A DNA stretch of 46,393 bases from Nautiliaceae bacterium (lineage in GTDB: Bacteria; Campylobacterota; Campylobacteria; Campylobacterales; Nautiliaceae). The first letter of the stretch is position 1; each line of letters starts with the position of its first letter. The notes beneath the pieces were generated by a model. It saw nothing but the letters and a program-made list of their open reading frames with translations. It was not told where the DNA came from and searched no databases. The translations under genes and the position numbers were made by a program. Of the stretch, positions 20,282 through 24,600 are shown piece by piece. The DNA is taken from contig JALVVX010000024.1 in assembly GCA_027038555.1 (NCBI GenBank), positions 1 through 46,393 of the forward strand. Reading direction: 5' to 3'.

Positions 20282-20316
20282 AAATATAAAAAAGGAAGTT
20301 GAATTATTCAACTTCC
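20282..20316 (-). terminator. intrinsic terminator of hrcA-grpE-dnaK with the stop codon as loop
   Basis: GGAAGTTGAA / TTCAACTTCC is a perfect 10-bp stem whose 3-nt loop is the dnaK stop codon TAA. On the minus strand it is followed by TTTTTTATATTTA. The 5' arm encodes the last DnaK residues EVE. The folding RNA may use a slightly larger loop. Confidence 0.88.
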
Positions 20317-22184
20317 GCATCGATAACATCGTCGTCACCGCCTTTATTTTCTTGGCTGCCTTGGCTTTGTCCGCCTTGTGCTCCGCCCTGAGCCGCCATG
20401 TTTTGAGCTGCTTTTTGAAGTTCTGCGTTAATTTCCTCTTTTAAAGCATCAATTTTTGCTTTATCTTCGCTTTGTTCTTCAATTAATTTTTTAGCTTCTT
20501 GAATTTTAGCTTCAAGTGCGCTTACATCACCAAGTTTGTCTTTATTGTCTTTGATGAATTTCTCAGCTTGATATGCAACTGCATCAAGTTCATTTCTTGC
20601 TTTAATAGCTTCAATTCTTGCTTTTTCTTTTTTGTTTGCTTCTTCTGCTTCTCTTATCATTTTTTGAATTTCTTCTTCGCTAAGAGTTGAGCTTCCTGTA
20701 ATTGTAATTTTTTGCTCTTTACCTGTATCTTTATCTCTTGCCGTAACATTTAAAATACCGTTTGCATCAATATCGAATGTTACTTCAATTTGTGGTACAC
20801 CTCTTGGTGCCGGTCTGATGCCTTCAAGATTGAATTGACCTAAGGATTTATTGTCTTTTGCAAGTTCCGCTTCACCTTGTAATACGTGAATTGTAACTGC
20901 TGTTTGATTATCCTCAGCTGTTGAGAACACTTGTGATTTTTTAACAGGTATTGTTGTACCTTTTTCAATAATTTTTGTCATTACTCCACCAAGTGTTTCA
21001 ATTCCAAGGCTTAGTGGTGTAACGTCAAGCAATAATACGTCTTTTACGTCACCTTTAAGCACACCCGCTTGAATTGCCGCACCAAGTGCAACCACTTCAT
21101 CAGGGTTAACAGATTTATTTAATTTTTTACCGTTAAAGTAATCACTTACCAATTGTTGTACTTTCGGTATTCTTGTAGAACCACCAACCATTACAATTTC
21201 ATCTATTTCATCTTTGCTTAGTCCCGCATCGTTTAGAGCATTGTCTATATGAGTTAATGTTTCTTGTAATAAATCATCAATCATTGCTTCGAATTTAGCT
21301 CTTGTTAATTTTTTAACCAAGTGTTTCGGTCCGCTCGCATCCGCTGTAATAAACGGCAGGTTAATTTCTGTCTCTTCTTTTGTTGAAAGTTCTTTTTTAG
21401 CCTGTTCAGCCGCATCTTTTAATCTTTGAAGAGCCATTTTATCATTACTTAGATCAATGCCTGTTTCGGCTTTAAATTCATCAATCAACCATTGAACGAT
21501 TCTGTTGTCAAAGTCATCCCCTCCAAGGAATGCATTACCGTCAGTTGCAAGTACTTGGAATGTACCATCCCCAATTTCAAGAACTGTAACGTCAAATGTA
21601 CCACCACCAAGGTCATACACAAGAACTTTTTCTTCACCTTTTTTATCAAGTCCGTATGCAAGCGCCGCAGCTGTCGGTTCGTTGATAATTCTAAGTACGT
21701 TAAGTCCTGCAATTTTACCAGCTTCTTGTGTCGCTTTTCTTTGAGCGTCGTTAAAATATGCCGGTACTGTAATAACTGCTTCTGTTACTTCTTCACCAAA
21801 GAATTCTTCCGCATCATTTTTTAATTTTTGTAAAATTTTTGCGCTTATTTCTTGTGGTGTATAAACTTTTCCGTCAACCTCAACGGCACAAGCACCGTTT
21901 TTATCAACAATTTTATATTGAACGTGTTTTTTAGCTTCCTGAGCTTTTGGCTCATTACACATCATACCCATAATTCTTTTTACAGAATAAATTGTTCTTT
22001 CAGGATTTGTAATTGCCTGTCTTTTAGCAGGCTCACCTACTAAAACACCTTTATCTGTAAATGCCACAACTGATGGAGTTGTATTTTTACCTTCTTTATT
22101 TGGAATAATTTTGGCATCTTTTCCATCATAATATGCCATTGCACTGTTTGTTGTACCTAAGTCAATTCCTATTACTCTTCCCAT
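20304..22184 (-). CDS. dnaK: chaperone DnaK (Hsp70)
   Basis: 626 aa. The ATPase domain starts [16 protein letters not shown], with [33 protein letters not shown] (split phosphate loops) and [11 protein letters not shown]. The substrate-binding domain starts near residue 390 ([14 protein letters not shown]). A helical lid follows, then a Gly/Gln-rich tail and [10 protein letters not shown]. It works with GrpE (next gene upstream) and DnaJ (not in this window) in protein folding. AAGGAGGG precedes the ATG, 14 bases after grpE. Last gene of hrcA-grpE-dnaK, ending in a strong terminator. Confidence 0.98.
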
Positions 22185-22198
22185 AATACCCTCCTTAA

Positions 22199-22741
22199 TT
22201 ATTTTTTATTTATTGTAACCATTGATGGTCTTAGTAATTTGTTTTTAAGTTTATATCCTTTTTGATAAATATCAACTATTTCGCCTTCATCATGTTCTTC
22301 ACTTTGAACATGTTGAATGGCCTGATGATATTCAGGATTAAACTCTTCATGCTCCACAGGTTCAATCCCATGGTTTTTAAAAGTATCAAGCATTTTTTTA
22401 AGAGTGAGTTCCACTCCTTCCACAAGTTTGTCAAAAGCCTCTTCCTTATTGTCGATTTCTTTTGCATGAATAATTGCAAGCTCCAATGAATCAACTACCG
22501 GAAGAAGGTCTTTTGCAAATTTTTCATATGCATAATCAACTAATGCATCAGCTTCTTTTTTGAGTATTTTTTTATCGTTTTCACACCTTGCATAAGCTCT
22601 CAGCGCTTCATCAAGCTTTTGTTTAAGTTCTTCATTTTCTTTTAAAAGTTCTTCATTTTCATTTGAAGAAGCGTTTTCGTTTTTTAAATTTTTTTCTTCT
22701 TTGCGTTCATTTTCATGCTTTTTTTTATGATGTTTTGCCAT
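22199..22741 (-). CDS. grpE: nucleotide exchange factor GrpE
   Basis: 180 aa. Residues 1-~35 are a highly charged head rich in Lys, Glu and Asn. A long coiled coil runs to about 85 ([30 protein letters not shown]). The four-helix and beta-wing part has [46 protein letters not shown] and a C-terminal [15 protein letters not shown]. It exchanges ADP for ATP on DnaK. The ATG at 22741 lies 17 bases inside hrcA and has a strong AAAGGAGGGG site, so it is coupled to the repressor gene. Confidence 0.96.
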
Positions 22742-23483
22742 TTTCCCCTCCTTTCATAGATTCAAACAAACTTTCGAAATCACTATATATATCTCCTATA
22801 ATATAAATATCAATCTCTTTTTCTTCATTTAAAAGATGATATTTTTTGATAAGGAGTTTTTCATCATAATTGATATAATAATCTTCAACTTGCTTTAAAA
22901 AATCAAAATTAATATTATTGAATTTATTATATAATAATTTTTGATTTATTATATATTTTTTTTGAAAATTTTTTATGTTTTTTAATAAGTCGTATAATTT
23001 ATAATGTGTTAAAATTTTTTTTAATTCTTTTAAATTCAAATATTTGAGACTTTTTAGAAGATTATATATATTCTCATCATATTTCAATACGGTCTCATCT
23101 TCTTCAAATTCTAAAACAATAAATTTATTTTTTACATTATAAACTTCTTTTAACATCTGATTTTCAAAGATCTTTACAAGAGCCGAAACATTATATTGTT
23201 TACATTCTTCTTCAAGTAAATCAATTGAAAAAAATTTTATTTTTTTCGGTAATTTGTGCTTCCAATAAAAATCCATAGCTTTAACACTTGGATAAGAACC
23301 ACTTGCAAAATGTTCTTTTTGAATCATCCCCTTTTTTTCAAGAATCTGAAAATAGCCTCTTATTGTTGAAGGGGACATATTCAAATGCGATAATTCTTTA
23401 AGTGCGGTTGAGCTTATAGGCTCTTGTACTTTTAAATAAGTTTTTATTAACTCGTTTAGAATAAACTCAACCTTATTTTTCAT
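22725..23483 (-). CDS. hrcA: heat-inducible transcription repressor HrcA
   Basis: 252 aa from the ATG at 23483 (MKNKVEFILNELIKTYLKVQEPIS). The winged helix-turn-helix at about 20-60 (STALKELSHLNMSPSTIRGYFQILEKKGMI) is typical of HrcA. The C-terminal part is short and strongly diverged compared with the ~340 aa Bacillus protein, which fits the small HrcA of Campylobacterota. It represses chaperone operons by binding CIRCE. A frame upstream to 23534 is open, but it crosses a consensus -10 and the expected transcription start, so the shorter start is chosen. It heads hrcA-grpE-dnaK, and a degenerate CIRCE site overlaps its leader. Confidence 0.88.
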   Translation of the reverse strand: MKNKVEFILNELIKTYLKVQEPISSTALKELSHLNMSPSTIRGYFQILEKKGMIQKEHFASGSYPSVKAMDFYWKHKLPKKIKFFSIDLLEEECKQYNVSALVKIFENQMLKEVYNVKNKFIVLEFEEDETVLKYDENIYNLLKSLKYLNLKELKKILTHYKLYDLLKNIKNFQKKYIINQKLLYNKFNNINFDFLKQVEDYYINYDEKLLIKKYHLLNEEKEIDIYIIGDIYSDFESLFESMKGGENGKTS

Positions 23484-23485
23484 TT

Positions 23486-23512
23486 TTGGCACTCTTTCAT
23501 TTTTATTGACAA
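23486..23512. promoter_or_regulatory. degenerate CIRCE-like operator upstream of hrcA
   Basis: On + the left arm TTGGCACTC (23486-23494) matches CIRCE TTAGCACTC at 8 of 9. After exactly nine bases, TATTGACAA (23504-23512) matches the right arm GAGTGCTAA at 5 of 9. It covers the leader and the predicted start of transcription. A second inverted repeat with the same 9-bp spacing, TTTCATT-N9-AATGAAA (23495-23517), overlaps it. Either or both could bind HrcA. Confidence 0.55.
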
Positions 23513-23516
23513 TGAA

Positions 23517-23545
23517 ATTATACATATTAATCAATATATTGTCAA
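23517..23545 (-). promoter_or_regulatory. consensus sigma-70 promoter of hrcA-grpE-dnaK
   Basis: On the minus strand TTGACA (23545-23540), a 17-bp spacer and TATAAT (23522-23517) are perfect matches to the housekeeping consensus. Transcription would start near 23510, leaving a leader of about 27 nt. A perfect promoter fits an operon held down by a repressor. Confidence 0.88.
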
Positions 23546-23554
23546 GTATTTTAA

Positions 23555-23595
23555 TAAAAAAATTAAAAAAAGTTTAGCTTTAATAACTAAACTTT
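23555..23595 (-). terminator. terminator of panB-ruvB-perM
   Basis: On the minus strand AAAGTTTAG (23595-23587) pairs with CTAAACTTT (23577-23569) around a 9-nt loop, followed by TTTTAATTTTTTT. The stem begins 7 nt after the perM stop. An alternative 8-bp hairpin (23583-23605) spans the stop codon itself. Confidence 0.75.
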
Positions 23596-23601
23596 CATTA
23601 G

Positions 23602-24600
23602 TTATACTTTTTCATAGAATTTTAAAACAGATATAAACATCGTAGTAATAGCAGGTCCTAAAATAATTCCCCAAAGTCCAAAAGACGAAAGTCCTGCTAC
23701 AATTGCAAAGAAAATAAGAAGCGAATTAATTTCAATTTCAGTCTCAAAAAATTTCTTAACTCCCACAATTATTAAAGGTTTTATAAAAGTATCGGCTATT
23801 ATAGAAATAACAACAATAGAGTAAATAGCTACTATTATCGCCCCTTTTACATTCCCTTGTGAATAAAGATATAAACTCACAGGACCCCACATAATTATTC
23901 CACCTATTACAGGAATTAAAGAAGCAAAAGCATACATAACCATAAAAAAGAAAAAATCAAGTCCGAAAAAACTTACAATAAATCCAAACAATGTCCCTTC
24001 CAAAAGTGCAGTAAGTATTGTAGAATAAAATACAACACTCATTACTTCACTTGTATTAAAAAAAAGAGTTTCAAGCTGTTTTTCACTCATTGGAATTATT
24101 TTTTTTAAAAATTTCAAAATCTCTTTTCCATATAAAACCGCAAAAAAGAAAAAAATAACAATCAAAAAAGCATCTTTGAAAAAAAGAGCACTTTTTTGAG
24201 TTATAGTTCCTATTACCGGTAAAACAGTTTGATATATTTGATTAAAATTTTCGGGAGACAATATCTTTTTTATTTTTTCAGAAATAATATCCGGAAGATA
24301 ATTTACCAATTTTAGCAACTCATTTAAAATATTTTTAACAATTTCAGGATCAACACTGCTTACAAGTTTGCCAAGTTCAATAATAAAATATAAAAAAGGA
24401 CCGAATATCAAAACAGAAAGTATAAGTGTATCGATAATAGTAACATAAATATGTTTATCAATTTTTTTTGAAAGTATCAAATTTATTTTACCAAATGCTA
24501 CCGCCATCAAAGAAGCTATTGCTATATCCAAAAGATATGGTCTATATACCAAATATACAAAATAACCAATAACAAGAGTTAAAATTGTAAGGAATTTCAC
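23602..24600 (-). CDS. AI-2E/PerM-family membrane transporter, GTG start
   Basis: 332 aa with about seven to eight TM helices. Two come at the N-terminus, followed by a soluble amphipathic stretch (about 65-130). The rest includes family segments such as [20 protein letters not shown] and [12 protein letters not shown], and the C-terminal [16 protein letters not shown]. The family includes autoinducer-2 exporters and sodium/proton antiporters, so the substrate is open. The start is GTG at 24600 in a GTGA overlap with the ruvB stop. Last gene of the panB-ruvB-perM operon. Confidence 0.88.

What the first reader, a model, noticed from the sequence alone, without database searches (positions are those of the whole stretch)
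23486..23517. Degenerate CIRCE and a second 9-spaced inverted repeat on the hrcA start site
TTGGCACTC-N9-TATTGACAA fits CIRCE in the left arm (8/9) and poorly in the right (5/9). An overlapping TTTCATT-N9-AATGAAA has the same spacer. Both lie over the start of a perfect TTGACA-N17-TATAAT promoter. This looks like HrcA autoregulation through a diverged operator.
Basis: partly seen in the sequence, partly recalled or inferred. Interest (0 to 1): 0.5.

Follow-up and report, generated by a model that had tools for sequence, protein, structure and literature searches.

The report
Heat-shock repressor's own DNA switch
A bacterium of the Nautiliaceae family appears to control its chaperone genes with two repressors, one of which sits on the start of its own gene at a changed but conserved DNA site, in a layout already known from Helicobacter and Campylobacter.

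Summary
The CIRCE-like repeat is real and most likely HrcA's own operator; the second repeat is chance. By score alone a 13/18 CIRCE match occurs 1.2 times per shuffled window, so conservation decides. An exactly 15-spaced [GT]CA...TG[ACT][CT]AA site lies upstream of hrcA in 23 of 25 related genomes and upstream of groES in 23 of 23 genomes with HrcA against 4 of 15 without. Five relatives that lost hrcA between unchanged neighbours lack the pattern and its right arm. groESL of this genome carries the same kind of site; clpB does not. TTTCATT-N9-AATGAAA is exact in 1 of 25. This is the dual HrcA/HspR layout footprinted in Campylobacter jejuni. New here: the outer half-site is TTGTCA rather than TTAGCA in the lineage where HrcA's wing arginine is serine (serine 15 of 15, arginine 49 of 49 others), probably one event. 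Known system, interesting variant; nothing was measured.

The parts
23486..23512 (-). HrcA operator, diverged CIRCE: TTGTCAATA-N9-GAGTGCCAA on the - strand (-2 to +25 from the predicted start site)
   Evidence: letters; same spacing upstream of hrcA in 23 of 25 genomes and upstream of groES in 23 of 23 with HrcA
23486..23494 (-). right half-site GAGTGCCAA, two bases before the ATG; GAGTG in 13 of 13 family sites; possibly a weak ribosome-binding site as well (inference)
   Evidence: column counts
23504..23512 (-). left half-site TTGTCAATA; GTCA is lineage-specific, inner triplet is not CTC
23510..23510 (-). predicted transcription start (7 bases after TATAAT; not measured)
   Evidence: inference
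23517..23522 (-). -10 box TATAAT
23540..23545 (-). -35 box TTGACA, spacer 17
   Evidence: 12/12 in 13 of 13 family hrcA promoters
23573..23591 (-). HAIR-like candidate HspR operator TTTAGT-N7-GCTAAA, centred -72
23565..23596 (-). hairpin plus T7 over the same repeat: probable terminator of the upstream gene
   Evidence: 49 nt folded: -11.6 kcal/mol, z -3.68; -2.4 to -13.3 among 13 family genomes
22725..23483 (-). hrcA (252 aa, short type PRK03911)
   Evidence: below curated cut-off; gene order and alignment A1; 1stz match
22199..22741 (-). grpE
20304..22184 (-). dnaK
23602..24600 (-). AI-2E family transporter gene upstream of the operon
   Evidence: PF01594

Best explanation
The site at 23486-23512 is the operator through which HrcA represses its own operon hrcA-grpE-dnaK. 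A HrcA dimer bound from -2 to +25 blocks a perfect housekeeping-type promoter at its start site; the same repressor binds a more symmetric version of the site at groESL. HspR (cbpA-hspR operon elsewhere in the genome) binds a HAIR-like repeat centred at -72 at both promoters. On heating, HrcA and HspR let go and both operons are read. Shown by sequence: the site, its strict spacing, its presence at groES, its loss where hrcA was lost, and the fixed -72 repeat. Inferred from the footprinted relatives: which protein binds which repeat, repression, and heat release.
For: Spacing: of gaps 11-19 upstream of hrcA, 15 gives 23 of 25 and the others 0-5; of gaps 10-20 upstream of groES, 15 gives 23 of 23 HrcA+ genomes and the others 0-5. 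Association with HrcA: 23/23 against 4/15, Fisher p 1.1e-6; HrcA present in the same 25 of 41 genomes by NF003033 and by the own-lineage profile. Gene loss: G008, G015, G017, G018, G019 have ruvB, AI-2E gene, grpE, dnaK in a row and no hrcA match at E 1e-4, while G012 of the same genus has it there; the five grpE promoters have neither the pattern nor the right arm, but all keep a HAIR-like repeat at -72. G012 keeps the CIRCE-like site at hrcA and groES. Own groESL site at G000:C25:78241-78267. HAIR-like repeat: score at least 11 of 12 in 13 of 13 family hrcA promoters at spacer 7, 0 of 13 at 6, 8, 9; centre -72 in 13 of 13 hrcA and 16 of 20 groES promoters. HspR-like gene beside a cbpA-like gene in the own genome. 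Literature: HrcA on CIRCE-like repeats over the start site and HspR upstream in C. jejuni (PMC7464140, passages and section 3.4); same in H. pylori, with HspR centred 72 bp upstream at Pgro (PMC6032397, passages).
Against: No binding or expression data for this organism. The 13/18 score is not significant by itself. The pattern was written after seeing the sequences and the genomes are related, so the p-value is optimistic. 4 of 15 genomes without detected HrcA match: G016 (57% complete) and G038 (grpE not found) may hold an unseen hrcA, G015 looks like a chance overlap, G027 has a clean repeat and no HrcA found. G021's match is at -98, not at the usual place, so 22 of 23 is the stricter count. 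Two hrcA-less grpE promoters still show a left-arm GTCA. At groES the HAIR-like repeat reaches 11 in only 15 of 20 family genomes, and spacer 11 reaches it in 5 of 20. The protein is below curated HrcA cut-offs. In C. jejuni Phrc was not deregulated in an hrcA mutant although HrcA binds it (PMC7464140), so autoregulation may be weak.
Confidence: 0.88

Rival explanations
1. The site is a leftover: HrcA works only on groESL, and the hrcA copy is a decaying CIRCE without function.
For: It is the less symmetric copy (mean 5.85 against 6.85 of 9 pairs in 20 genomes, inner three 0.95 against 2.6); Phrc was not deregulated in a C. jejuni hrcA mutant (PMC7464140).
Against: GAGTG of the right arm is fixed in 13 of 13 family sites and the asymmetry is shared across the order (inner right GAG in 45 of 55 sites), so this is a kept form; decay is seen where hrcA is gone.
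Confidence: 0.07
2. The 7-spaced repeat at 23573-23591 is only the intrinsic terminator of the AI-2E gene, not an HspR operator.
For: Hairpin -11.6 kcal/mol, z -3.68, followed by T7 in this genome; T runs of 4 to 7 follow in all 13 family genomes.
Against: Predicted hairpin strength ranges from -2.4 to -13.3 kcal/mol in those 13 while spacer 7 and centre -72 do not vary; the same kind of repeat stands at -72 before groES in 16 of 20; a 7-spaced repeat lies on the -35 box in 11 of 12 other-family hrcA promoters and of clpB in 14 of 16.
Confidence: 0.1
3. The conserved stretch is kept for the 5' end of the mRNA (ribosome binding, RNA structure) rather than for a repressor.
For: The right half-site ends two bases before the ATG and could serve as a weak ribosome-binding site; by eye no better one is there.
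Against: The predicted 5' RNA does not fold (-0.4 kcal/mol, z 0.66); the site also stands at groES, which has its own GGAGG, and in several other families lies further from the start codon; it disappears with hrcA.
Confidence: 0.04

Closest known systems
HrcA/HspR dual control of Pgro and Phrc in Campylobacter jejuni (PMC7464140; passages and section 3.4 seen)
   Same: HrcA on a single CIRCE-like repeat over the start site of both operons, HspR on HAIR-like repeats upstream
   Different: Outer half-site TTGTCA; HAIR-like repeat at -72 in both operons; binding and cooperativity untested here. The C. jejuni operator letters were in a figure I could not see
HrcA/HspR control in Helicobacter pylori (PMC6032397; passages seen)
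   Same: HspR site centred 72 bp upstream of the groES start; HrcA over core promoter and start
   Different: H. pylori HspR site at the hrcA operon is centred at -117; here -72 at both
Bacillus subtilis CIRCE/HrcA (consensus as quoted in PMC7464140)
   Same: 9-9-9 geometry; hrcA-grpE-dnaK and groESL as targets (recalled for B. subtilis)
   Different: 13/18 matches with a diverged left arm; HspR as apparent partner

Membership tests
CIRCE operator of HrcA | two 9-base arms with 9-base spacer near TTAGCACTC/GAGTGCTAA | tested here: met
   8/9 and 5/9 with spacer 9, a score that alone is within chance; exact spacing conserved
CIRCE operator of HrcA | present at both hrcA operon and groESL and tied to an HrcA gene | tested here: met
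   exceptions listed in the Against line
CIRCE operator of HrcA | bound by HrcA, heat-released | not testable with these tools
   needs footprint or gel shift
HrcA repressor | score above curated family cut-off | tested here: not met
   NF003033 155.9 bits against 248, TIGR00331 63.9 against 197.2, PF03444 19.3 against 21
HrcA repressor | HrcA DNA-binding domain by profile, and hrcA-grpE-dnaK order | tested here: met
   profile A1 finds T. maritima HrcA 1stz, E 7.1e-22, chain residues 16-98; gene order; best family E 1.5e-45
HAIR operator of HspR | CTTGAGT-N7-ACTCAAG-like repeat with 7-base spacer | tested here: met
   TTTAGT-N7-GCTAAA, a variant of the consensus; spacer 7 in 13 of 13 family hrcA promoters; the loose pattern is not enriched genome-wide
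HAIR operator of HspR | hspR gene present, repeat at its own promoter | tested here: met
   MerR_1 protein of about 125 aa beside a cbpA-like gene; GTTGATT-N7-GCTCAAA on its -35, read by eye
HAIR operator of HspR | bound by HspR | not testable with these tools
   needs footprint

The most novel reading that the evidence does not exclude
On the branch leading to Nautiliaceae and its sister family, HrcA changed its DNA preference: the wing arginine found in all other HrcA proteins compared (SGR-x-P, also in T. maritima HrcA) became serine, and the operator's outer half-site moved from TTAGCA to TTGTCA/TGACAA, while the HspR site of hrcA moved from the -35 box to -72. A natural rewiring of a repressor and its operators.
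Probability: 0.35. Interest if true: 0.55.

Novelty: new variant of a known kind. Interest (0 to 1): 0.38.

Why it matters
It extends the two-repressor heat-shock circuit, worked out in two pathogens, to the Nautiliaceae, and offers three natural experiments: clean loss of hrcA with decay of its operator, a matched change of a repressor wing residue and its operator, and relocation of the HspR site. HrcA-DNA contacts become directly testable.

Tried and rejected
Second repeat TTTCATT-N9-AATGAAA: rejected as chance. Canonical CIRCE: no exact match in the window and none in the genome for TTRGCACTC-N9-GAGTGCYAA. A loose operator pattern made from the two own sites gives 41+33 hits at up to 3 mismatches against 23+32 for the reversed control, so it is not specific at that level; the two zero-mismatch hits are the sites it was built from (circular). 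Three other hits looked at (C17:155739, C8:53815, C25:36567) lie inside open frames. The loose HAIR pattern is not enriched genome-wide (44 hits against 70 for the reversed control); only position and conservation carry it. By the score used for hrcA, 1 of 16 clpB stretches reaches 11; the clpB repeat is seen only with the form that allows TTGACW as left arm (14 of 16 at spacer 7, 0 at 5, 6, 8, 9). The structure model of HrcA from 7 sequences is poor (mean pLDDT 52.9; residues 52-66 below 50), so the wing was placed by alignment to 1stz and recalled knowledge of the winged-helix domain, not by structure. Residue 63 is not the only lineage-specific residue of the DNA-binding domain: 12, 32, 46, 49, 56 and 68 also pass the cut used; only 63 is clean. 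One search was a first version that kept 14 of the 49 other proteins.

Full report
What is there. The letters are as described. The - strand reads TTGACA-N17-TATAAT, four bases, then TTGTCAATA-N9-GAGTGCCAA and, two bases later, the ATG of a 252-residue HrcA-like protein followed by grpE and dnaK. The protein fits the HrcA-family model PRK03911 with E 1.5e-45 but stays under its cut-off, and a profile of it and 23 relatives finds T. maritima HrcA (1stz, E 7.1e-22) over the DNA-binding domain.

Chance. CIRCE matches of 13 of 18 or more with a 9-base spacer occur twice in this window and 1.21 times per shuffled window. The score alone is therefore weak. The second repeat is one of 22 exact 7-base repeats with a 9-base spacer in the window and is exact in 1 of 25 genomes. 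I reject it.

Conservation. Upstream of hrcA in 25 genomes the blocks [GT]CA and TG[ACT][CT]AA stand exactly 15 bases apart in 23; gaps 11-14 and 16-19 give 0 to 5. In the 13 family sites G3, C5, A6 and GAGTG are invariant, and GTCA holds in 12. Upstream of groES, 23 of 23 genomes with HrcA match against 4 of 15 without. Three of the 41 genomes gave no usable groES stretch (G001, G024, G025) and are not among these 38. The pattern was written after seeing the sequences, and genomes are related, so the p-value of 1.1e-6 is only a guide.

Natural loss. In one genus of the family five genomes (G008, G015, G017, G018, G019) have ruvB, the transporter gene, grpE and dnaK in a row without hrcA; G012 of that genus has hrcA at that place. 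All five keep the promoter and a 7-spaced repeat centred at -72, and none has the CIRCE pattern or its right arm; two keep a left-arm GTCA. At groES of the same genus G012 keeps a full site; of the six HrcA-less genomes (G020, 63% complete, included) five have no match and G015 has a chance-like one. This is the strongest evidence that HrcA reads the site.

The missed operator. TTTAGT-N7-GCTAAA at 23573-23591 has the layout of HspR's HAIR. Upstream of hrcA a repeat of this kind scores at least 11 of 12 in 13 of 13 family genomes with spacer 7 and in none with spacer 6, 8 or 9 (3 of 13 reach it at spacer 12); upstream of groES in 15 of 20 at spacer 7, with up to 5 of 20 at another spacer. Its centre is 72 bp before the predicted start in 13 of 13 hrcA, 16 of 20 groES and 5 of 5 hrcA-less grpE promoters. 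H. pylori HspR is centred at -72 on Pgro (PMC6032397, passages). Outside the family, 11 of 12 hrcA promoters carry CTTGACA-N7-RCTMAA on the -35 box, and 3 of 12 (G029, G030, G032) have an upstream repeat scoring 11 or more; G029 and G030 have both. So the HspR site at hrcA appears to have shifted from the -35 box to -72. The repeat also forms a good terminator hairpin in this genome, but predicted hairpin strength varies widely among relatives while spacing and distance do not. An HspR-like MerR_1 gene lies beside a cbpA-like gene. clpB has a 7-spaced HAIR-like repeat on its -35 box in 14 of 16 stretches examined, 12 of 12 in the family, and a CIRCE match in 1 of 16, outside the family; I examined 16 of the 20 clpB loci that one search returned.

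Asymmetry. The poor arm is not random decay. In 20 genomes with both sites (G021 left out) the hrcA site is less symmetric than the groES site (5.85 against 6.85 of 9 pairs; inner three 0.95 against 2.6). The inner right triplet is GAG in 45 of 55 hrcA sites and the inner left is CTC in 2 of 55. I infer a weaker autoregulatory operator, so that the hrcA operon would be released before groESL; this is not shown.

Lineage variant. I compared 65 genomes: the 25 above plus 40 chosen by me, to spread over genera, from the further HrcA-bearing genomes (157 of 248 had a match there). Of the 65, 55 have both a wing motif and a site by pattern; left position 4 is T in 14 of 15 with wing serine and in 1 of 40 with wing arginine. 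Ten rows were dropped; seven of them show a GCA left arm by eye. Residue 63 is serine in 15 of 15 and arginine in 49 of 49 others, one protein without the motif left out. A GroEL tree of 28 genomes places G032 of the sister family next to Nautiliaceae (100/99), so this is probably one event. G006 has serine with GGCA, and groES sites of G003 and G007 have GCA, so the preference is relaxed rather than absolute.

Known work. HrcA binding over the start sites and HspR upstream at Pgro and Phrc is published for C. jejuni (PMC7464140; passages and section 3.4). A metagenome study says in one sentence that HrcA in Nautiliales is probably regulated by HspR (PMC10696704; passages). Of PMC8533110 (C. 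jejuni HrcA as thermosensor) I saw one passage and the start of the abstract. My searches for HspR/HrcA/CIRCE/Campylobacter (8 papers), HrcA/CIRCE with winged helix, comparative genomics or binding specificity (15 of 94 listed) and Nautilia with HrcA (1 paper) showed, by title and start of abstract, no paper on the operator change or wing substitution; only open-licence papers are held.

Verdict. A real, conserved HrcA operator in a known circuit, in a lineage-specific form. The mechanism is inferred from footprinted relatives; nothing was measured in this organism.

Noticed in passing
G000:C2:6766-6784, locus L129 / L230: A DUF308 gene (HdeD-like by recall) has a HAIR-like repeat TTTAGT-N7-ACTAAA centred 51 bp before its predicted start; of 16 family genomes printed, own included, 12 score 11 or more of 12, all centred at -51 or -50 (the spacing control was not printed because the script failed at row 17). 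Possible new HspR target.
   Followed up: partly
locus L090 (G027, groES upstream): A clean TTATCACTC-N9-GAGTGATAA stands before groES although no HrcA and no MerR_1/HspR was found in this 96% complete genome.
   Followed up: no
loci L117, L126, L127, L128, L136: hrcA is precisely missing between the AI-2E transporter gene and grpE in five genomes of one genus, with a MerR_1/HspR match kept in all five.
   Followed up: yes
L030, L036, L046, L049 (groES upstream of HrcA-less genomes): Where the CIRCE right arm is lost, short palindromes such as AGTTAA-A-TTAACT or AGATT-AAA-AATCT stand before the ribosome-binding site (by eye); possible RNA element, not tested.
   Followed up: no
window 23584-23604: A further exact 7-base repeat (7-base spacer) overlaps the HAIR-like repeat; probably chance.
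   Followed up: no
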